This document shows positions 45,196-51,224 of a stretch of 64,000 bases of DNA, in pieces (the stretch's first letter is position 1; each line of letters opens with the position of its first letter). The DNA is from a virus. The translations under genes were made by a program, and so were the position numbers. A model generated the notes under the pieces. That model was not told the DNA's origin, searched no databases, and was given only the letters and a program-made list of their open reading frames with translations. The stretch is taken from positions 109,308-173,307 of the IMG/VR virus record IMGVR_UViG_3300043395_001986, one strand, 5' to 3'.

Positions 45196-45567
45196 GGGGA
45201 TGCCATGGAATTGATTGCAATGTAAATGGTAGTACCACACGTAGACAAAGGAAGAAAGTCTTTAAATACTTACAAAACAATAACTGACGAAATGTCAACA
45301 ATGACCTTTGATTCTTTAATGGAATTCATCGGCGCTGATTACGCAGTAGCTGCCTAATCACAATCGGGTCGGAATACATATAACCTAGGAACAGAAGTAT
45401 CTATAAAGGTGGAAAATTAACTGAACCCAAAATCGAGTTAAAATAATGATGGCGATGAATTATCAAAACTCGCCTAATTTGTAAGTTTTGATAAAATTTA
45501 CTAAACGTGTGATATGCTGGTATTATTAGTTCTTTGTAAGACAGGGGTTCGATTCCCCTCATCTCCA
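45196..45567 (+). ncRNA. ssrA: Phage-encoded tmRNA
   Basis: The 5' strand GGGGATG (45196-45202) pairs with the 3' CATCTCC (45560-45566) to form a 7-bp acceptor stem, with discriminator A45567. The 3' part has a canonical T-arm (GGGGTTCGATTCCCC). After the 5' strand comes the typical tmRNA D-loop-like sequence TGGAATTGATTGCAATG. CACACGT (45236-45242) pairs with ACGTGTG (45505-45511), the long P2 helix. An in-frame tag reading frame ends GADYAVAA then TAA at 45355-45357, resembling bacterial degradation tags (..YALAA). The readable frame from GAC 45286 is 23 codons; the exact resume codon is uncertain. It should rescue stalled ribosomes and mark their products for proteolysis. Confidence 0.88.
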
Positions 45568-45570
45568 CTA

Positions 45571-45670
45571 AAATTAAATAGTGTGGTATCTGATACTGAC
45601 AGCTCTTTGGGAGTGATGGGTGTGAAAGCAGATTGAAAAGGGTACGACCCAACCCCACACTATTTAATTT
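45571..45670 (+). ncRNA. Stem-closed structured RNA downstream of the tmRNA
   Basis: AAATTAAATAGTGTGG (45571-45586) pairs perfectly over 16 bp with CCACACTATTTAATTT (45655-45670). Inside, ATCTG (45588-45592) pairs with CAGAT (45629-45633), CTC and GAG enclose a five-base loop near 45604, and GGG and CCC enclose TACGA near 45640. It is tRNA-sized plus a long stem, but no canonical T-loop or anticodon arm fits. Unknown function. Confidence 0.65.
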
Positions 45671-45822: not shown

Positions 45823-45900
45823 TGTTAAGGTTGAAGCCATCAACTAATAAAACCGATTGAGTGACGTATGCAGTACGGAAGAAAGCCGGACACCTTAACA
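45823..45900 (+). ncRNA. Stem-closed structured RNA after the initiator tRNA
   Basis: TGTTAAGGT (45823-45831) pairs with ACCTTAACA (45892-45900). Inside are hairpins TTGA-agcca-TCAA and CGTA-tgcag-TACG. It is tRNA-sized (78 bases) but has no T-loop consensus. A run of ten A follows. Confidence 0.6.
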
Positions 45901-45920
45901 AAAAAAAAAACCCAAAGAAA

Positions 45921-45952
45921 TTTGGTAGTTTGAAAAAAGTATCGTATATTTG
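45921..45952 (+). promoter_or_regulatory. Bacteroidota-type promoter of the giant non-coding RNA unit
   Basis: TTTG (45921-45924), 20 bases, TATATTTG (45945-45952). The next protein-coding gene is 2.2 kb downstream, so this promoter serves an RNA. Confidence 0.85.
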
Positions 45953-46910
45953 TATTGTTAAGTTTGAAACTTATAGGCAATGAAAGATACTCGGTATTCA
46001 AACTTTTAGTTCTTTAAAAGATTAAAAATACTTTACATAGTAGACTTGTTCTACATAGTAAACAACGGCCGCATATGGTCGTCAAATAAACTACGAAAGT
46101 AGGATAAAGTGGATTGTTAGGTTTACACAATCTGCGGTTTATAGGTCTTTGGACTTATGAGCTTGAGTATGCAAGTGGGGTATCATTTGAGCTTTGTACG
46201 AAAGGGTAACACTATATCGGAAGAGTTTGAATGACCGGGGTAAGTAGATACTTCGGTTGAGTTCGGAAGAACAATAAGAATAACTCATAGAACATCAGTA
46301 AGAAATATAACGCTAATCACTTTATACAATTGCGGTGTTCAATTCAAGAGGAGTCTTAAAACCAAGCCATCCGAAAGGACGTAAGGTATGTTAATGTACA
46401 GGTGGTGCTGTTATTAACCATTGATAAATCGTACCAACGATTATTGGTGAAGATTTCTTATAGAATGGTACTGACGATAGTACATCGGGTAGTTCAGTAT
46501 TCTCTCGACCAAAAGTTGAGGGAACTGGTTGGCAAACCGCTACCTGAACCCATCTACAAACCAACCCTTTTATCAAAATGAGGATTTTGACAATTCAATT
46601 TAAAAATAAAAGCTTAAGTGTTTGCCAGTTACGGACGAAAGATGTGTACATAGTAGGGAGCTGTTCCTTGCCACGATACCTTCGCAAGAGGTCTGTGATT
46701 CTTTAAAAAAACTTCTAACACCGCAAGTGTTAATCAGGTCGGCAGATTTGAAGAAGCGGAGTATAAAGAGAGTAAGACGTAACTCAAAGACTGATAGTCT
46801 CAAATCATCCACATTGTATCGGTACTACTCAAAAGGTAGTGGATAAGAAAGGAAACAATAATCTTTCTAAAGTCGGTACTCCCAATGAGGTAATCTCACT
46901 CATTTATTTT

Positions 46911-46951
46911 TTTACAATGGTTGTATATTGGTTCGATTCCAATAGTAAAAA
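46911..46951 (+). other. T-arm-like tRNA fragment inside the giant RNA
   Basis: TATTGGTTCGATTCCAATA is a perfect T-arm with consensus loop, flanked by T-rich 46911-46917 and GTAAAAA (near 46944-46950), which could pair as an acceptor stem, followed by CA. Only about ten bases separate the 5' strand from the T-arm, so there is no room for D and anticodon arms. It looks like a minimal tRNA-like domain. Confidence 0.5.
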
Positions 46952-47091
46952 CAAATAGTCCGTTTGCAATAATAGCTCGAATAGTGAGAAAGAAGCAGTT
47001 AGGACTTTAACTAAACAACAAAACCTTTGAAACTATTCACAAGTATCGTGGTCATTTTAGCATAGAGTTCAGATGTGCGAACCTCTCAAGC

Positions 47092-47109
47092 AGTTTTAGA
47101 CCTAATAAA
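47092..47109 (+). repeat. Direct repeat in the giant RNA, copy 1
   Basis: AGTTTTAGACCTAATAAA occurs here and, one base shorter, at 47151-47167. Both lie beside helix CATTTTAG 47053/CTAAAATG 47114. Confidence 0.7.
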
Positions 47110-47150
47110 AAAACTAAAATGTAGCATAGATACATCCGGTTTTGTGGGGA

Positions 47151-47167
47151 AGTTTTAGACCAATAAA
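47151..47167 (+). repeat. Direct repeat in the giant RNA, copy 2
   Basis: AGTTTTAGACCAATAAA matches copy 1 except for a missing T. It may mark equivalent loops or binding sites. Confidence 0.7.
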
Positions 47168-47476
47168 TAAACGCAATCTATACGATATGATTGCCAGTTA
47201 TGTAGTAGGCCGCTATAAGAGAGAGCTGTTCCCCTTTTTCTCTCATTTTAAATGGCTAATTTGACGAGGCTAGTATTAACCAGAGCATGACTTGGATGGC
47301 GTATTTTGAAGTTAGATTAGCTTTTTTAAAAAAACTATATTTATTATAAGATGATGAACTTGAATTTACATACGAATTGTTATCAACCGACGCTTAATGT
47401 GTGGGGTAGCATTATTATGTATAATTCAGGGGATATAAAAGGATAATAGTATAGTAGATTATATAAATTATTTGAA

Positions 47477-47507
47477 AACCCTGACTTAAAAAAGTTGGGG
47501 TTTTTTT
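47477..47507 (+). terminator. Rho-independent terminator of the giant RNA unit
   Basis: AACCCTGACTT (47477-47487) pairs over 11 bp, with two G-U pairs, with AAGTTGGGGTT (47492-47502), and seven T follow (47501-47507). Confidence 0.9.
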
Positions 47508-47515
47508 GTTTATAG

Positions 47516-47589
47516 GCTTCTTTAGCTCAGCAGGTTAGAGCGACTGACTGTTAATCAGTAGGTCCTTGGTTCGAGCCCAAGAAGAAGCG
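47516..47589 (+). tRNA. tRNA-Asn (GTT)
   Basis: Acceptor GCTTCTT/AAGAAGC is perfect. The anticodon arm ACTGA-CTGTTAA-TCAGT gives GTT. T-arm CTTGG-TTCGAGC-CCAAG. It begins nine bases after the giant RNA's terminator, so it likely belongs to a new or read-through transcript. Confidence 0.95.
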
Positions 47590-47594
47590 CAATT

Positions 47595-47676
47595 GGGAGT
47601 ATTGTGTAGCGGCAATCACTGCGGACTGTAAATCCGCTCTCATTCGAGTTCGAAGGTTCGAGTCCTTCTACTCCCA
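47595..47676 (+). tRNA. tRNA-Tyr (GTA)
   Basis: Acceptor GGGAGTA/TACTCCC. The anticodon arm GCGGA-CTGTAAA-TCCGC gives GTA. A long variable arm is present, as expected for bacterial Tyr tRNA. T-loop TTCGAGT. Confidence 0.95.
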
Positions 47677-47682
47677 CAAAAA

Positions 47683-47754
47683 GCAGGTGTCGTATAATGG
47701 CCATTACTCCTTCCTTCCAAGTAGGAGACGGAGGTTCGATTCCTCTCACCTGCT
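47683..47754 (+). tRNA. tRNA-Gly (TCC)
   Basis: Acceptor GCAGGTG/CACCTGC. The anticodon loop CTTCCAA gives TCC; the anticodon stem CCTTC/GTAGG has one T-T mismatch. T-arm GGAGG-TTCGATT-CCTCT. Confidence 0.88.
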
Positions 47755-47759
47755 CAAAT

Positions 47760-47830
47760 TGCCTCTTTGTGTAATGGTAGCACAAAAGTTTTTGGTTCTT
47801 TTAGTTTAGGTTCGAATCCTAAAGAGGCAT
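47760..47830 (+). tRNA. tRNA-Gln (TTG)
   Basis: Acceptor TGCCTCT/AGAGGCA. The anticodon loop TTTTGGT gives TTG, closed by a T-T mismatch above an AAAG/CTTT stem. T-arm TTAGG-TTCGAAT-CCTAA. Confidence 0.88.
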
Positions 47831-47835
47831 CACTT

Positions 47836-47909
47836 TGGAATATAGCTCAATTGGTTAGAGCATCCGTCTGATACGCGGAAGGTTGTAGGTTCGAGTCCCA
47901 CTATTCCAA
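47836..47909 (+). tRNA. tRNA-Ile (GAT)
   Basis: Acceptor TGGAATA/TATTCCA. The anticodon arm TCCGT-CTGATAC-GCGGA gives GAT. T-loop TTCGAGT. All arms normal. Confidence 0.93.
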
Positions 47910-47912
47910 CCG

Positions 47913-47965
47913 ATGTTTTGTAGTAATGAGGTAAGGTTAAAACTGACATACATAATACAAAACAT
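47913..47965 (+). ncRNA. Short stem-closed RNA between tRNAs
   Basis: ATGTTTTGTA (47913-47922) pairs perfectly over 10 bp with TACAAAACAT (47956-47965) around a 33-base loop. It fills the gap between tRNA-Ile and tRNA-Trp. It could be a processing signal or an independent RNA. Confidence 0.5.
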
Positions 47966-47970
47966 AAATT

Positions 47971-48041
47971 GCGGGTTTGGTGCAACGGCAGCATGTAAGT
48001 CTCCAAAACTTTTGATGGGAGTTCGAATCTCTCAACCCGTG
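47971..48041 (+). tRNA. tRNA-Trp (CCA)
   Basis: Acceptor GCGGGTT/AACCCGT with one G-U. The anticodon loop CTCCAAA gives CCA. T-arm GGGAG-TTCGAAT-CTCTC-like. Confidence 0.9.
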
Positions 48042-48049
48042 CAAACAAT

Positions 48050-48122
48050 GGCTCTATGGTGAAATGGATTATCACGCAACGCTACGGACGTTGAATTTTG
48101 GGTTCGAATCCTAATGGGGCTA
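48050..48122 (+). tRNA. tRNA-Arg (ACG)
   Basis: Acceptor GGCTCTA/TGGGGCT contains three G-U pairs. The anticodon arm CAACG-CTACGGA-CGTTG gives ACG. T-loop TTCGAAT. A34 would normally be edited to inosine by host TadA. Confidence 0.9.
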
Positions 48123-48137
48123 CTAAAACAAAATGAT

Positions 48138-48401
48138 ATGAAAACATTTAAAGATTTGGAATTTAAATCTCACCCAATGGGTATGGGAGTAATAGCTAGA
48201 GAAGATTTTCATAATGGTTATGGAGTGACCGTTGTAAAAGGACCGCACACATATGGTGGAGATAAAGGATTATATGAATTGGCAGTTTGGAAAGATGGAA
48301 CAATTCATTACGATAATCCAGTTGCAATGGGAGATGTGGTTGGATATTTAAGAGAAGAAGATGTTACCGATGCTATTTTATTAGTTCAGAAATTTGAATA
48401 A
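48138..48401 (+). CDS. Small protein embedded in the tRNA island
   Basis: ATG 48138 is chosen because the in-frame ATG at 48114 lies within the tRNA-Arg gene. The 87-residue product (MKTFKDLEFKSHPMGMGVIA onward) is a small alpha/beta protein with HNGYGVTVVKGPHTYGGDK and a C-terminal helix. It sits between tRNA-Arg and tRNA-Cys and must be cut from the tRNA precursor or transcribed with it. No family is recognised. Confidence 0.75.
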   Translation: MKTFKDLEFKSHPMGMGVIAREDFHNGYGVTVVKGPHTYGGDKGLYELAVWKDGTIHYDNPVAMGDVVGYLREEDVTDAILLVQKFE

Positions 48402-48403
48402 AA

Positions 48404-48474
48404 GGCGAGTTGGCCGAGTGGTGAGGTGGAGCTCTGCAAAAGCTTTCACATAGGTTCGATTCCTATACTCGCCT
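48404..48474 (+). tRNA. tRNA-Cys (GCA)
   Basis: Acceptor GGCGAGT/ACTCGCC is perfect. The anticodon arm GAGCT-CTGCAAA-AGCTT gives GCA. T-arm ATAGG-TTCGATT-CCTAT. Confidence 0.94.
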
Positions 48475-48481
48475 CAACATG

Positions 48482-48552
48482 GTGGTTGTAGCCTAATGGT
48501 AGGGCGAAAGTTTGTGGCACTTTATGTGAGAGTTCGATTCTCTCCAATCACA
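48482..48552 (+). tRNA. tRNA-His (GTG)
   Basis: Acceptor GTGGTTG/CAATCAC. The anticodon arm AAAGT-TTGTGGC-ACTTT gives GTG. A G lies at 48481, where the extra 5' G of tRNA-His is expected. T-arm GAGAG-TTCGATT-CTCTC. Confidence 0.93.
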
Positions 48553-48556
48553 CAAA

Positions 48557-48640
48557 GGAAGGATGGGTGAGGGGTTTAAACCAGCAGTTTACTAAACTGC
48601 CGACTCAAAAGGTCCGTGAGTTCGAATCTCACTCCTTCCG
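48557..48640 (+). tRNA. tRNA-Ser (ACT), unusual anticodon
   Basis: Acceptor GGAAGGA/TCCTTCC. The anticodon arm GCAGT-TTACTAA-ACTGC gives ACT, which reads AGU serine codons; bacteria normally use GCT here. The long variable arm fits serine. T-arm GTGAG-TTCGAAT-CTCAC. Confidence 0.85.
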
Positions 48641-48641
48641 C

Positions 48642-48782
48642 ATGAAAACAAATAAATTTGAAACTAACAAAAGAGTAAATCGTATTGTTAGAATTAGAAA
48701 AATTATTAGAGAAAATGGAGCTTGTTTAATATGTGTGAGGAGATGGAATGGTGGAATTAAAAAATATAGAACAAACTGCTAA
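48642..48782 (+). CDS. Small basic protein embedded in the tRNA island
   Basis: The 46-residue product begins MKTNKFETNKRVNRIVRIRK and contains ACLICVRRW. It is strongly basic, with two cysteines spaced C-x-x-C and many Arg/Lys. It starts two bases after tRNA-Ser and ends just before tRNA-Leu. Nucleic-acid or ribosome binding is suggested by composition alone. A longer in-frame start (48567) would lie inside the tRNA and is rejected. Confidence 0.6.
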   Translation: MKTNKFETNKRVNRIVRIRKIIRENGACLICVRRWNGGIKKYRTNC

Positions 48783-48784
48783 AT

Positions 48785-48865
48785 ACCCCGTTGGTGGAAT
48801 TGGTAGACACGCTGGTTTTAGGCACCAGTGCGAAAGCATTAAGAGTTCGAGTCTCTTATGGGGTA
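48785..48865 (+). tRNA. tRNA-Leu (TAG)
   Basis: Acceptor ACCCCGT/ATGGGGT with one G-U. The anticodon arm CTGGT-TTTAGGC-ACCAG gives TAG. A short variable arm (TGCGAAAGCA) is present. T-arm AAGAG-TTCGAGT-CTCTT. Confidence 0.93.
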
Positions 48866-48880
48866 CAAAAATAAAGTATT

Positions 48881-49336
48881 ATGAAATATAAACGGCTATT
48901 CGATAGTAAAGAAGTAGATTTAGTTGAATATGTAAAAGACTGGTTAGAGTTAAAACCAAATGCAGAAATACTGATTGGTTGTGACTCACAAAACTTTTCA
49001 GATAAAACGATATACGCTATTGTAGTGGCAATTTATGATGTGGGTAAAGGTGCACATGTTTTATATAATAGGTGGAAAACGAAAAGAGAACCAACTAGAA
49101 ATATTAGATTATTGAATGAAGTTTGGTATGCAGTTGAAACTGCCGAATATATGAAAAATGCAGGTATTCCTGAAGTTAAGTGGATTGATATAGATATTAA
49201 TCCAGACCCAAAATTCAAATCTAACGAAGTTTTAAGGCAAGCGGTGGGTTTAGTGGAAGGAATGGGATATAAGGTAAGATACAAAACTTTGGGACCTATT
49301 GCAACTTACGCAGCTGACCATTTAGTTAAAATTTAA
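48881..49336 (+). CDS. RNase H-like protein of the DUF458 type
   Basis: The 151-residue protein contains ILIGCDSQNFSDKTIYAIVV, the first strand with the catalytic Asp (G-x-D-S-Q) of the DUF458/RNase H-like family, then KGAHVLYNRWKTKREP, WIDIDINPDPKF with acidic residues, and KVRYKTLGPIATYAADHLV. It is a predicted nuclease of unknown substrate. Its place inside the RNA island suggests tRNA or RNA processing, which is inference. It has no promoter of its own and is followed by a host-type promoter at 49387. Confidence 0.7.
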   Translation: MKYKRLFDSKEVDLVEYVKDWLELKPNAEILIGCDSQNFSDKTIYAIVVAIYDVGKGAHVLYNRWKTKREPTRNIRLLNEVWYAVETAEYMKNAGIPEVKWIDIDINPDPKFKSNEVLRQAVGLVEGMGYKVRYKTLGPIATYAADHLVKI

Positions 49337-49386
49337 ACTTTTTTAGTTTTTTGGGTAGCTGTAAAAAATTTTTTGGAGTTAAAAAT

Positions 49387-49417
49387 TTTGCCACGTGCGA
49401 ATTTTATACTATATTTG
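49387..49417 (+). promoter_or_regulatory. Bacteroidota-type promoter for the second tRNA block
   Basis: TTTG (49387-49390), 19 bases, TATATTTG (49410-49417). tRNA-Glu starts at 49432. Confidence 0.82.
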
Positions 49418-49431
49418 TAACATACAAAACT

Positions 49432-49503
49432 GCTCGGTTGGACTAGGGGTTAGGTCACATCCCTTTCACGGATGTAGCACGGGTTCGAATCCCGTACCGA
49501 GTA
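49432..49503 (+). tRNA. tRNA-Glu (TTC)
   Basis: Acceptor GCTCGGT/ACCGAGT. The anticodon arm CATCC-CTTTCAC-GGATG gives TTC. T-arm ACGGG-TTCGAAT-CCCGT. Confidence 0.94.
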
Positions 49504-49508
49504 CAAAG

Positions 49509-49595
49509 GTACACTATAATTCGGTCAAGCCACATTTAGCCGTTAGTGTATTGATAGGTAAGAGAAAAAGAAGTGGCTGGGACGTTTCTCTTACC
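49509..49595 (+). ncRNA. RNA with two hairpins whose loops are complementary
   Basis: Hairpin 1: TACACTA (49510-49516) with TAGTGTA (49544-49550). Hairpin 2: GGTAAGAGAAA (49557-49567) with TTTCTCTTACC (49585-49595), 11 bp. Loop 1 contains AGCCAC (49528-49533) and loop 2 contains GTGGCT (49573-49578), so a six-base kissing interaction is possible. No protein or tRNA fits. Confidence 0.65.
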
Positions 49596-49612
49596 GACCA
49601 TATAGGTTGATT

Positions 49613-49698
49613 GGAATTTGCCCATTGTGGCCAAATCGGTTAGAAATGCCAGTCGTAAAAGTAGATGTCCACGCACCCATCTTCTACTTTCCTAAATT
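49613..49698 (+). ncRNA. Structured spacer RNA before tRNA-Thr
   Basis: AAAGTAGA (49658-49665) pairs with TCTACTTT (49683-49690). The loop contains CCAC, complementary to GTGG at ~49627. AATTT (~49615) and AAATT (~49694) could close the element. It has no T-loop consensus. The weakest of the island's non-tRNA RNAs. Confidence 0.4.
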
Positions 49699-49772
49699 GC
49701 CTTGATAGCTCAGTTGGCCAGAGCATCTGATTTGTAATCAGAGGGTCGTCAGTTCGAATCTGACTCGAGGCT
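49699..49772 (+). tRNA. tRNA-Thr (TGT)
   Basis: Acceptor GCCTTGA/TCGAGGC with one G-U. The anticodon arm TCTGA-TTTGTAA-TCAGA gives TGT. T-arm GTCAG-TTCGAAT-CTGAC. Confidence 0.95.
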
Positions 49773-49777
49773 CAAAA

Positions 49778-49826
49778 GGACTTAAATGGTCGAAGTACAA
49801 GACCGGTGTAGGTTAGTCCCACCTAC
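49778..49826 (+). ncRNA. Small pseudoknotted RNA between tRNA-Thr and tRNA-Asp
   Basis: Hairpin GTAGGT (49808-49813)/ACCTAC (49821-49826) has loop TAGTCCC, in which AGTCC (49815-49819) is complementary to GGACT (49778-49782). GGTC (49788-49791) pairs with GACC (49801-49804) between them. The result is a compact pseudoknot of about 49 bases. Confidence 0.6.
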
Positions 49827-49831
49827 AAAAA

Positions 49832-49905
49832 GGAGTGGTAGTTCAGTTGGTTAGAATGCTGCCCTGTCACGGCAGAGGTCGCGGGTTCGAGTCCCGTCCA
49901 CTCCG
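49832..49905 (+). tRNA. tRNA-Asp (GTC)
   Basis: Acceptor GGAGTGG/CCACTCC is perfect. The anticodon arm CTGCC-CTGTCAC-GGCAG gives GTC. T-arm GCGGG-TTCGAGT-CCCGT. Confidence 0.95.
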
Positions 49906-49906
49906 C

Positions 49907-49978
49907 AAACACAATTAGGTTGTATATGCAATTAGCTCGGCAACCTTTTACACCTGAAGATGTGAGATGGTTGTGTTT
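49907..49978 (+). ncRNA. tRNA-sized stem-closed RNA
   Basis: AAACACAA (49907-49914) pairs with TTGTGTTT (49971-49978). Inside, GGTTG (49918-49922) pairs with CAACC (49941-49945), and CAC/GTG form a second small hairpin (~49951-49965). Its 72-base span and 8-bp outer stem mimic a tRNA, but no T-loop or anticodon arm is present. Confidence 0.55.
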
Positions 49979-49981
49979 TAA

Positions 49982-50145
49982 AGTTGTTCTATACACTTAA
50001 CACGCTTAGTAACAAAGCAAGGCACATAGAGTTACATAGAAGCATGGAGTAATTACCCAACGCTACATTCGGACTACAAATGTGATTAAGTTCAGACGTT
50101 GTAGAGAAAGAGATGTTAAGAGTAAACTTGCAAGTTAGAACAACT
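49982..50145 (+). ncRNA. Multi-branched structured RNA, 164 bases
   Basis: AGTTGTTCTA (49982-49991) pairs perfectly over 10 bp with TAGAACAACT (50136-50145). Nested inside are CTTAAC (49996-50001)/GTTAAG (50115-50120), GTAAC/GTTAC (~50010/50030), CAACG/CGTTG (~50058/50097), ACATT-cggactaca-AATGT (~50064-50082) and AACTT/AAGTT (~50124-50135). The nesting is consistent with one folded molecule. Confidence 0.65.
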
Positions 50146-50148
50146 AAT

Positions 50149-50220
50149 GGACTCATAGTTAAATGGATATAACTACTGCCTTCTAAGCAGTTATTGGTAG
50201 TTCGATTCTACCTGAGTCTA
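50149..50220 (+). tRNA. tRNA-Arg (TCT)
   Basis: Acceptor GGACTCA/TGAGTCT with a G-U first pair. The anticodon arm ACTGC-CTTCTAA-GCAGT gives TCT. T-arm GGTAG-TTCGATT-CTACC. It starts four bases after the multi-branched RNA. Confidence 0.93.
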
Positions 50221-50225
50221 CAAAT

Positions 50226-50299
50226 TGGGAAATAGCGCAGTCCGGTAGCGTACTTGGTTTGGGACCAAGGGGTCGCAGGTTCGAATCCTGTTTTCCCAA
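50226..50299 (+). tRNA. tRNA-Pro (TGG)
   Basis: Acceptor TGGGAAA/TTTCCCA is perfect. The anticodon arm CTTGG-TTTGGGA-CCAAG gives TGG. T-arm GCAGG-TTCGAAT-CCTGT. Confidence 0.94.
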
Positions 50300-50306
50300 C
50301 ATAATA

Positions 50307-50338
50307 TTTGGTAGTTTAAAAAAATTATCTTATATTTG
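50307..50338 (+). promoter_or_regulatory. Bacteroidota-type promoter for the third tRNA block
   Basis: TTTG (50307-50310), 20 bases, TATATTTG (50331-50338). tRNA-Leu starts at 50359. Confidence 0.82.
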
Positions 50339-50358
50339 TAAAAGTTATTTGATAAGCA

Positions 50359-50443
50359 GCCTTGGTGTTGGAATTGGTAGACAAGACAGACTTAAAATCT
50401 GTTTCGCTGAAAGCGAGTGCGGGTTCGATTCCCGCCTGAGGCA
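50359..50443 (+). tRNA. tRNA-Leu (TAA)
   Basis: Acceptor GCCTTGG/CTGAGGC with two G-U pairs. The anticodon arm ACAGA-CTTAAAA-TCTGT gives TAA. A long variable arm (TCGCTGAAAGCGA) fits leucine. T-arm GCGGG-TTCGATT-CCCGC. Confidence 0.94.
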
Positions 50444-50463
50444 CGGACGGAAAAACCAAAGTT

Positions 50464-50537
50464 GGGGAAGTAGCTCAGTTGGCTAGAGCATCTGCCTTGC
50501 ACGCAGAGGGTCATGGGTTCGACTCCCTTCTTCTCCA
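50464..50537 (+). tRNA. tRNA-Ala (TGC)
   Basis: Acceptor GGGGAAG/CTTCTCC with one G-U. The anticodon arm TCTGC-CTTGCAC-GCAGA gives TGC. T-loop TTCGACT, with one mismatch in the T-stem. Confidence 0.93.
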
Positions 50538-50543
50538 CAATAT

Positions 50544-50649
50544 GCCGGAGTGGCGGAAAGAGATGTGTACAATCTTGAGACGTTCCTATTCTAGAGTGGT
50601 GGGGTAACCGAAAAGGACCCCGTGAAGTTAACCAATACTTCCTCCGGCA
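50544..50649 (+). ncRNA. tRNA-like RNA with perfect acceptor stem but aberrant arms
   Basis: GCCGGAG (50544-50550) pairs perfectly with CTCCGGC (50642-50648), followed by A and CC. The 3'-proximal hairpin GAAGT/ACTTC sits where a T-arm should be, but its eight-base loop (TAACCAAT) lacks the TTCGA consensus. A GGGG/CCCC variable-like hairpin (50601-50621) precedes it. No standard anticodon arm can be drawn. It may be a degenerate class II tRNA or a tRNA mimic. Confidence 0.6.
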
Positions 50650-50709
50650 CCTTATGGGCTTTGGTGATATAGCCATAAAGAGAGATAGATGTTTCTCATT
50701 CACTAAAAT

Positions 50710-50740
50710 AGGTAGGTGTTTCCACCACCTGCTTATTTTT
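50710..50740 (+). terminator. Terminator-like hairpin before tRNA-Met
   Basis: AGGT-A-GGTG (50710-50718) pairs with CACCACCT (50723-50730) with one bulged A and loop TTTC. TTATTTTT follows after GC. Confidence 0.6.
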
Positions 50741-50743
50741 ATT

Positions 50744-50818
50744 GGACCTGTAGCTCAGTTGGTTAGTAGCACCTGACTCATAATCAGGGGGTCATAGGTT
50801 CAAGTCCTATCGGGTCCA
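50744..50818 (+). tRNA. tRNA-Met elongator or tRNA-Ile2 (CAT)
   Basis: Acceptor GGACCTG/CGGGTCC. The anticodon arm CCTGA-CTCATAA-TCAGG gives CAT. The first acceptor pair is G-C, so it is not the initiator. An Ile tRNA with lysidine-modified C34 would look the same at the anticodon. T-loop TTCAAGT. Confidence 0.92.
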
Positions 50819-50847
50819 CAAATTATTAAAATTTAAAACATAAAACT

Positions 50848-51123
50848 ATGGAATTTTTTGGTTATTATTATTTGATTTGTTTGGTGTATTGTTTGTATAT
50901 GTCATTCAAAAAATGGAACAGAGATGTTAAAACAGGTGGGTTAGGTATTTCACCTGGTTTAGACACAATGGCTATGTTGATTATGTGTTGGGCATTGGCT
51001 CCAATTGATATATTTTTGACATGGGTTAGGGTCTATAAAGAAGCAGAAGAAGCTAGAAGAAATCAAAGTAAATTTGAAATGGATACTAAAGATTTCGAAA
51101 AAGAAAAAGGTAATATCTATTAA
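50848..51123 (+). CDS. Small membrane protein embedded in the tRNA island
   Basis: The 91-residue product has two hydrophobic segments ([18 protein letters not shown] and [20 protein letters not shown]) and a charged C-terminal helix ([20 protein letters not shown]). It lies between tRNA-Met and tRNA-Ser and probably uses the same transcript. It is inner-membrane located. No family is recognised. Confidence 0.7.
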
Positions 51124-51130
51124 TATAACA

Positions 51131-51215
51131 GGAGAGATGGCAGAGTGGTTGAATGCACCGGTCTTGAAAACCGGCATACTGAAAGGTATCTGGGGTTCGA
51201 ATCCCTGTCTCTCCG
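51131..51215 (+). tRNA. tRNA-Ser (TGA)
   Basis: Acceptor GGAGAGA/TCTCTCC. The anticodon arm CCGGT-CTTGAAA-ACCGG gives TGA. A long variable arm (CATACTGAAAGGTATC) is present. T-arm TGGGG-TTCGAAT-CCCTG. Confidence 0.95.
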
Positions 51216-51224
51216 CAAATTTGG

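What the first reader, a model, noticed from the sequence alone, without database searches (positions are those of the whole stretch)
45921..47507. A 1.5-kb non-coding transcription unit that looks like a giant ornate RNA
A textbook Bacteroidota promoter (TTTG-N20-TATATTTG) and an 11-bp terminator bracket about 1.55 kb with no believable gene. The interval is full of perfect local helices, GNRA-type tetraloops, a three-way junction (GGG-tag-TTCAG at ~46487 with CTGAACCC at 46544 enclosing two hairpins) and interlocking 3' helices. Giant ornate RNAs such as GOLLD and ROOL are known beside phage tRNAs and can be very abundant. This one, at up to 1.5 kb and in a Bacteroidota-type myovirus, may be a new family or a distant member.
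Basis: partly seen in the sequence, partly recalled or inferred. Interest (0 to 1): 0.92.

Follow-up and report, generated by a model that had tools for sequence, protein, structure and literature searches.

The report
Giant RNA and tRNA-sensing switch
A bacterial virus carries a known type of giant cage-forming RNA (GOLLD), followed by a previously undescribed switch: a tiny peptide gene whose amino acids match the transfer RNAs encoded just after it, apparently so that the virus makes its own tRNAs only when the cell's protein synthesis stalls.

Summary
Window 46485-46902 is a full-length hit to Rfam GOLLD (269 bits, cutoff 150). A 5' domain outside the Rfam model (46009-46468) shows very strong covariation in 36 relatives. 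So the RNA is a new member of a known family, about 0.95 kb long.

The other ~0.6 kb is not one RNA with it. GOLLD is followed by a tRNA shrunk to a covarying acceptor/T-arm minihelix, then an optional ~200-nt RNA, a conserved hairpin, a translated micro-ORF (47351-47446) and a terminator 10 nt before a 20-tRNA island with no promoter of its own there.

Across 27 phages the micro-peptide contains 96% of the amino acids whose tRNAs lie in that phage's island, but 52% of the others. The association holds within clades, fails in the other reading frames, and goes the same way in 12 of 12 sister-pair changes. Near its stop codon lies a segment that covaries with the terminator arm, as in attenuators.

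Best reading: GOLLD heads a tRNA operon gated by an attenuator whose leader peptide senses shortage of the tRNAs the phage can supply. Experimentally untested. The window's own leader is a weak example (14 of 17).

The parts
45921..45952 (+). Bacteroidota-type promoter TTTG-N20-TATATTTG of the GOLLD/tRNA operon
   Evidence: 26 motif matches in the window vs 7.1 by chance. No further match on this strand until 49387. The 45914-45954 block recurs in related phages.
45963..46002 (+). Conserved leader hairpin CTTATAGGCAATGAAAGATACTCGG enclosed by AAGTTTGAA/TTCAAACTT
   Evidence: Conserved in L034, L002 and L046; role unknown
46009..46468 (+). GOLLD 5' domain (not covered by the Rfam model)
   Evidence: 36 distinct relatives, 18 helices, 97.1% of cells paired vs 77.0% shuffled and 36-43% slid; 69 pairs with changes on both sides
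46485..46902 (+). GOLLD 3' domain, Rfam RF02032 model positions 1-416
   Evidence: 269.1 bits vs gathering 150, E 1.3e-75 (alignment)
46628..46633 (+). GOLLD long-range (kissing) strand GTTACG
   Evidence: Covaries with 46778-46783: GTTACG/CGTAAC, GTTGC/GCAAC, GTTTCA/TGAAAC, GTTATA/TATAAC, GTTGTG/TACAAC
46778..46783 (+). GOLLD long-range (kissing) partner CGTAAC
46909..46951 (+). tRNA-derived minihelix: acceptor stem TTTTTAC/GTAAAAA, D-loop remnant AATGGTT, T-arm TATTGG-TTCGATT-CCAATA; replaces the tRNA-Gly found here in relatives
   Evidence: 10 variants, 13 pairs, 97.7% paired, 4 pairs with changes on both sides. Intact or eroded tRNA-Gly at the same place in relatives.
46955..47045 (+). Spacer region shared only with L077
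47046..47244 (+). Element C, type 1: ~200-nt structured RNA of unknown function, optional, three sequence types in relatives
   Evidence: Conserved motifs and predicted helices in three types. No credible Rfam match.
47255..47321 (+). Element D: 11-bp covarying stem (47255-47265 with 47311-47321) around the near-invariant core GAGGC...TATTAACC(A/G)GAGCATGACTTG...TGGCGTATTTTGAA
   Evidence: 25 distinct sequences, 98.0% paired, 8 pairs with changes on both sides vs 4.2 shuffled
47351..47446 (+). Leader micro-ORF, MMNLNLHTNCYQPTLNVWGSIIMYNSGDIKG
   Evidence: pN/pS 0.50 in frame vs 0.78 and 1.16 in the other frames; amino-acid content tracks the island tRNAs
47426..47431 (+). Antiterminator segment TCAGGG (segment 2), 18 nt before the stop codon
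   Evidence: Complementary to 47479-47484. Similar position in relatives, with covarying partners.
47479..47484 (+). Segment 3 CCCTGA, 5' arm of the terminator and partner of segment 2
47474..47505 (+). Intrinsic terminator in front of the tRNA island
   Evidence: tRNA-Asn starts at 47516
47516..51216 (+). Island of 20 tRNA genes presumed to be gated by the terminator
   Evidence: Internal promoter-like sites only at 49387 and 50307.

Best explanation
The interval is the head of a phage tRNA operon. One promoter (45921) drives a GOLLD RNA of about 0.95 kb, which from its kinship should assemble into the known GOLLD cage (inferred). Its 3' end is set by a tRNA, or in this phage by a tRNA shrunk to an acceptor/T-arm minihelix, that RNase P can cut (inferred). 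Downstream lie an optional structured RNA, a conserved hairpin and a translated leader micro-ORF whose last codons overlap an antiterminator. The antiterminator competes with a terminator placed directly in front of the tRNA island. When every codon of the leader is read smoothly, the ribosome covers the antiterminator segment and the terminator forms. When a ribosome stalls because one of the leader's amino acids lacks charged tRNA, the antiterminator forms and RNA polymerase runs on into the tRNA genes. Shown here: GOLLD identity, covariation of the RNA parts, coding signal of the leader, matching of leader amino acids to island tRNAs, and covarying complementarity between leader end and terminator. 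Inferred: translation of the leader, RNase P cleavage, actual stalling and antitermination, and the trigger (for example tRNA-cutting host defences).
For: GOLLD: 269 bits. 5' domain covariation 97.1% paired, 69 pairs changed on both sides. Long-range pair covaries. Minihelix: covarying stems, in the place of tRNA-Gly genes; a second, tRNA-Glu-like lineage has eroded to a similar minihelix at the same spot (L004, L015, L035, L037). Leader and island: in 25 phages the leader holds 95.8% of island amino acids vs 50% of the others; permutation p about 5e-5, and 1e-4 within leader-length clades. Coverage 95.6% vs 68.5% for random same-length stretches of the phage's own proteins; no within-clade association in frames +1 and +2 (p 0.42, 0.40). 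With 27 phages, partial Mantel controlling for GOLLD divergence p=2e-4; in 13 non-overlapping pairs of close relatives, joint changes go in the same direction 12 times and oppositely 0 times. A diverged leader in a 266-kb phage without hairpin D covers 14 of 15. Leader codons are decodable by island tRNAs more often than phage genes in 21 of 21 phages. Antiterminator segment next to the stop codon in all 21 cases, predicted to pair before the terminator 3' arm is made (P 0.88-1.00); it covaries as GTTAGAGG/CCTCTAAC, GTTAAGGG/CCCTTAAC and GTCAGGGT/ACCCTGAC. No promoter motif between 45953 and 49387.
Against: The window's own leader is a weak case: it lacks Ala, Glu and Arg although the island has those tRNAs (p=0.12 alone). 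Glu is missing from the 22-codon leaders although most of their islands encode Glu tRNA. Half of the amino acids without an island tRNA are in the leader all the same. Only 13 of 29 antiterminator matches beat shuffles at 0.05 singly, and the phages are related. At equilibrium the terminator is far more stable than the antiterminator, so the switch must be kinetic. In the 22-codon leaders the segment lies just after the stop codon and is short. The promoter scan uses one consensus only. RNase P cleavage and cage formation were not tested.
Confidence: 0.72

Rival explanations
1. The whole 1.55 kb is one giant GOLLD-type RNA with a 3' extension. The terminator is an ordinary 3' end.
For: Single promoter and terminator bracket. 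Structured elements throughout.
Against: Known GOLLD ends with the 3' domain. A tRNA or tRNA-derived minihelix sits at that boundary in most relatives. Element C is absent in about half of the relatives. The last 100 nt before the terminator are coding.
Confidence: 0.1
2. The micro-ORF encodes a small functional phage protein, for example an anti-host or membrane peptide. The terminator is constitutive and the tRNAs come from leaky read-through or other promoters.
For: Conserved N-terminus MKTLTLHT and pN/pS below 1.
Against: Length varies from 22 to 53 aa with little conservation beyond the start. Composition tracks the island tRNAs. The ORF always sits between GOLLD and terminator and its end complements the terminator.
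Confidence: 0.12
3. The leader/island match is a by-product of shared ancestry: clades with long leaders happen to have large islands.
For: Leader length and island size both differ by clade; the match is weaker within clades (null mean 13.9 vs about 0, observed 21.0).
Against: Within-clade permutation p=1e-4, frame controls negative, partial Mantel p=2e-4 and 12:0 same-direction changes between close relatives, diverged lineage L189 agrees.
Confidence: 0.1
4. Regulation is by the structured elements (C and D as riboswitch-like sensors), and the leader merely couples translation to them.
For: Element D core is almost invariant and its stem covaries.
Against: Element C is optional. The independent leader of L189 lacks D. 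Neither explains the amino-acid matching.
Confidence: 0.1

Closest known systems
GOLLD RNA (Rfam RF02032; cryo-EM of GOLLD env-38, PMC12286853)
   Same: 3' domain matches the model end to end. 5' plus 3' domain layout, phage location, tRNA island and upstream tRNA-Met as for env-38. Long-range pair conserved by covariation.
   Different: Sits in a myovirus of 237 kb with Bacteroidota-type promoters. 3' boundary formed by a tRNA-derived minihelix. Followed by an attenuator that fronts the tRNA genes.
ROOL RNA
   Same: Large ornate phage RNA near tRNA islands (PMC12286853)
   Different: No ROOL match in Rfam searches
Ribosome-mediated attenuators with leader peptides (trpL, hisL, ilvL, pheM/pheST type; from general knowledge)
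   Same: Short ORF, segment 2 near its end, mutually exclusive antiterminator 2:3 and terminator 3:4, in front of the controlled genes
   Different: Controls a tRNA array. The leader is not rich in one amino acid but holds nearly all amino acids that the array can serve, up to all 20. No precedent found in the paper searches.
T-box riboswitches (general knowledge)
   Same: Senses shortage of charged tRNA and controls transcription termination
   Different: T-boxes read one uncharged tRNA by RNA pairing; here a translated ORF is the candidate sensor and no T-box is found by Rfam
tRNA-like processing signals such as MALAT1/mascRNA (general knowledge)
   Same: tRNA-shaped element directly 3' of a long non-coding RNA, suited to RNase P cleavage
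   Different: Derived from a phage tRNA-Gly and reduced to acceptor plus T-arm; cleavage not shown

Membership tests
GOLLD RNA (RF02032) | Match to the covariance model above the curated cutoff | tested here: met
   269.1 bits vs 150, model 1-416
GOLLD RNA (RF02032) | Separate, less conserved 5' domain joined to the 3' domain | tested here: met
   46009-46468, 18 covarying helices in 36 relatives. Homology to the env-38 5' domain itself not tested.
GOLLD RNA (RF02032) | Phage or prophage location near tRNA genes | tested here: met
   237-kb virus record, tRNA-Met upstream, 20 tRNAs downstream
GOLLD RNA (RF02032) | Covarying long-range pairing of the type shown to bridge subunits | tested here: met
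   Five variants of the pair; that it is intermolecular here is inferred
GOLLD RNA (RF02032) | Assembly into a 14-mer RNA cage | not testable with these tools
   Needs in vitro folding and cryo-EM
Ribosome-mediated transcription attenuator | Translated short leader ORF upstream of a terminator | tested here: met
   pN/pS 0.50 in frame vs 0.78 and 1.16; translation itself not shown
Ribosome-mediated transcription attenuator | Antiterminator segment overlapping the ORF end, exclusive with the terminator | tested here: met
   Position -24 to +3 from the stop in 21 of 21, covarying partners; individually significant in 13 of 29
Ribosome-mediated transcription attenuator | Leader codons match the product or role of the controlled genes | tested here: met
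   weak for the window itself (14 of 17)
Ribosome-mediated transcription attenuator | Read-through changes on ribosome stalling | not testable with these tools
   Needs reporter or in vitro transcription-translation
Functional tRNA gene (element at 46909-46951) | Anticodon arm and decoding | tested here: not met
   No D-stem, anticodon or variable arm; ARAGORN finds no tRNA
ROOL RNA | Match to the Rfam model | tested here: not met
   No hit

The most novel reading that the evidence does not exclude
Phages with tRNA arrays carry a general translation-failure sensor. It is a leader peptide that evolves to contain each amino acid whose tRNA the phage encodes (all 20 where the island is complete), so that loss of any of those tRNAs, for example by host tRNA-cutting defences, switches on the replacement set. 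GOLLD cages are made from the same transcript, upstream of the switch, which ties the long-unexplained giant RNA to tRNA supply.
Probability: 0.6. Interest if true: 0.93.

Novelty: new variant of a known kind. Interest (0 to 1): 0.84.

Why it matters
Two open questions meet here: why phages carry large tRNA arrays, and what GOLLD RNAs do. If the attenuator is real, the arrays are conditional and respond to failing translation, which fits the proposal that phage tRNAs counter tRNA-targeting host defences (PMC10264068, PMC11555353). It would be a leader peptide that senses a whole set of amino acids, with the set matched to what the operon can supply; I found no precedent. It would also give GOLLD a defined operon, 3' boundary and expression logic that can be tested with ordinary reporters.

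Tried and rejected
New giant-RNA family: rejected by the Rfam hit. ROOL, OLE, HEARO, group II intron: no hits in the same scans. Known RNA family for the downstream elements: no credible Rfam match. Finding element D in bacterial genomes: 30 matches to a 16-base core were all chance by flanking sequence, so no host could be named from it. Wider viral searches for D: 47 of 81 matches lacked the rest of the element; a looser pattern found nothing more. A leader-based pattern gave two further true leaders, L174/L190 and L186/L189, among chance hits. All-20 content alone as evidence: p about 0.003-0.02 per phage and not independent, so I rely on the match to the island instead. The observation that indels in the leader are multiples of 3 is biased by aligning ORFs only and is not counted. 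Annotated phage collection: only one weak relative of the GOLLD region, a 635-kb phage.

Full report
The Bacteroidota-type promoter motif occurs 26 times in the window against 7.1 expected, one copy at 45921-45952, and the terminator lies at 47474-47505. Rfam gives a full-length GOLLD match at 46485-46902, 269 bits against a gathering score of 150. The window is part of a 237,307-base virus record with one GOLLD, in a T4-like myovirus: tail fibre/baseplate, DnaB helicase and family B polymerase genes. The top helicase matches include Microcystis phage Mel-JY01 and Flavobacterium phage immuto; a second gene finds only these. The promoter type suggests a Bacteroidota host; this is inference.

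GOLLD is larger than the Rfam model. A motif search with 20 specified bases returned 46 viral stretches; six of them look like chance matches and the rest carry GOLLD end motifs or the 5' domain. Profile searching found the same 5' domain in 66 loci, the window included. On 36 relatives below 93% identity, the 5' domain (46009-46468) has 18 helices with 97.1% of cells paired (77.0% shuffled, 36-43% when slid), 69 of 95 pairs with changes on both sides and a covariation score of 0.626 against 0.228. The long-range pair 46628-46633/46778-46783 covaries in five variants. A GOLLD kissing pair was shown to join subunits in the cryo-EM 14-mer (PMC12286853); that this is the same pair, and that it is intermolecular here, is inference.

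The 3' boundary is a tRNA or its remnant. In 16 of about 74 GOLLD loci ARAGORN places a tRNA within 22 nt of the GOLLD end. In many more the same place holds an eroded tRNA (8-nt anticodon loops, hairpins inserted in the D-loop) or a 43-nt minihelix. Intact tRNA-Gly(TCC) is seen in L050, L059, L062 and L070. In the window the minihelix is 46909-46951. Over 10 variants its stems pair in 97.7% of cells with 11 cells changed on both sides (3.0 shuffled). A second, tRNA-Glu-like series shows the same reduction (L001 and L012 tRNA-like; L004, L015, L035, L037 minihelix). Decoding parts decay while acceptor and T-arm are kept, which is what an RNase P processing signal would need. Cleavage itself is inferred.

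Downstream elements. Element C (47046-47244) is ~200 nt, occurs in three sequence types, is absent in about half of the relatives and has no credible Rfam match. Element D (47255-47321) is a hairpin with a nearly invariant core and an 11-bp covarying stem. It was found in 34 viral contigs besides the window, downstream of GOLLD wherever the contig reaches and was checked. A diverged D occurs in L190.

The leader micro-ORF. After D comes an ORF of 22-53 codons beginning MK.LTLHT (window 47351-47446, 31 codons). Its pN/pS is 0.50 in frame, 0.78 and 1.16 in the other frames. Long versions hold all 20 amino acids (L034, L052, L067, L071, L073, L074, L078, L085, L190). Compared with the tRNAs of the downstream island in 25 distinct phages with usable islands, the leader contains 95.8% of the amino acids that have an island tRNA and 50% of those that do not. 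Exceptions are mainly Glu (8) and Asp (3). Permutation gives p=5e-5 overall and 1e-4 within leader-length classes. Frames +1 and +2 show none within classes (p 0.42 and 0.40), and random stretches of the phage's proteins cover 68.5%. With two further phages (27), the partial Mantel test controlling for GOLLD divergence gives p=2e-4, and among 13 non-overlapping closest pairs all 12 joint changes go the same way. Examples: L072/L080 have tRNA-Tyr and Y in the leader where L051/L053 have neither; L057 and L070 lack tRNA-Ile and I where L075 has both. Leader codons are readable by island tRNAs more often than the codons of the window phage's genes in 21 of 21 phages.

The switch. The terminator lies 10 nt before tRNA-Asn, and no promoter motif occurs between 45953 and 49387, so the first tRNAs need read-through. 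A segment near the stop codon (-24 to -18, or +3 in short leaders) complements the terminator's 5' arm in 21 of 21 distinct cases, and pairs with probability 0.88-1.00 in transcripts that end before the 3' arm. Its sequence changes together with the arm: GTTAGAGG/CCTCTAAC, GTTAAGGG/CCCTTAAC, GTCAGGGT/ACCCTGAC and, in the window, TCAGGG/CCCTGA. Singly, 13 of 29 beat dinucleotide shuffles at 0.05. This is the layout of a ribosome-mediated attenuator. The inferred logic: smooth translation covers the segment and the terminator forms; a stall at any leader codon leaves it free and transcription enters the tRNA genes.

Limits. The window's own leader lacks Ala, Glu and Arg, whose tRNAs are in its island. 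The phages are related, so p-values overstate independence; the pair contrasts are the safest test. In one search segment 2 was picked as the best complement, so the pairing probabilities there are not an independent test. The terminator is thermodynamically stronger than the antiterminator, so the switch would be kinetic. No expression data were available.

Novelty. GOLLD is known, and its tRNA neighbourhood was known (PMC12286853). I found no paper describing a leader peptide in front of a tRNA array, nor one matched to the array (the library lacks most subscription journals). I therefore rate the GOLLD as a new member of a known family and the operon as a new variant of ribosome-mediated attenuation.

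Noticed in passing
45196-45568: Phage-encoded tmRNA (tag DEMSTMTFDSLMEFIGADYAVAA) upstream of tRNA-Met and GOLLD; present at the same place in most relatives.
   Followed up: partly
45579-45670: RNA hairpin closed by an 11-bp stem (AAATAGTGTGG/CCACACTATTT) between tmRNA and tRNA-Met; no Rfam match.
   Followed up: no
45823-45902: Small structured RNA (GTTAAGGT...ACCTTAAC) between tRNA-Met and the GOLLD promoter, conserved in L003 and L034; no Rfam match.
   Followed up: partly
L034:9860-9960, L057, L075, L078: tRNA-Gly next to GOLLD with a hairpin inserted in the D-loop; ARAGORN does not recognise it.
   Followed up: partly
L004, L015, L035, L037 after GOLLD: Second, apparently independent tRNA-derived minihelix (GGTCGGT/ACCGACC acceptor), followed by a short RNA and a tRNA-Glu-like gene with a large D-loop insert.
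   Followed up: partly
L189:2998-3123: Diverged leader in a 266-kb phage without hairpin D (MKTLALHTNLFNLPLYKSWSNICVFNSSIRKSSVEGSNLFT), covering 14 of 15 island amino acids.
   Followed up: yes
48881-49333: RNase H-like protein gene (PF04308) inside the tRNA island.
   Followed up: no
L001 (LR745206.1): A 635-kb phage record carries GOLLD with the same 5' domain, downstream of tRNA-Met as in the window.
   Followed up: partly
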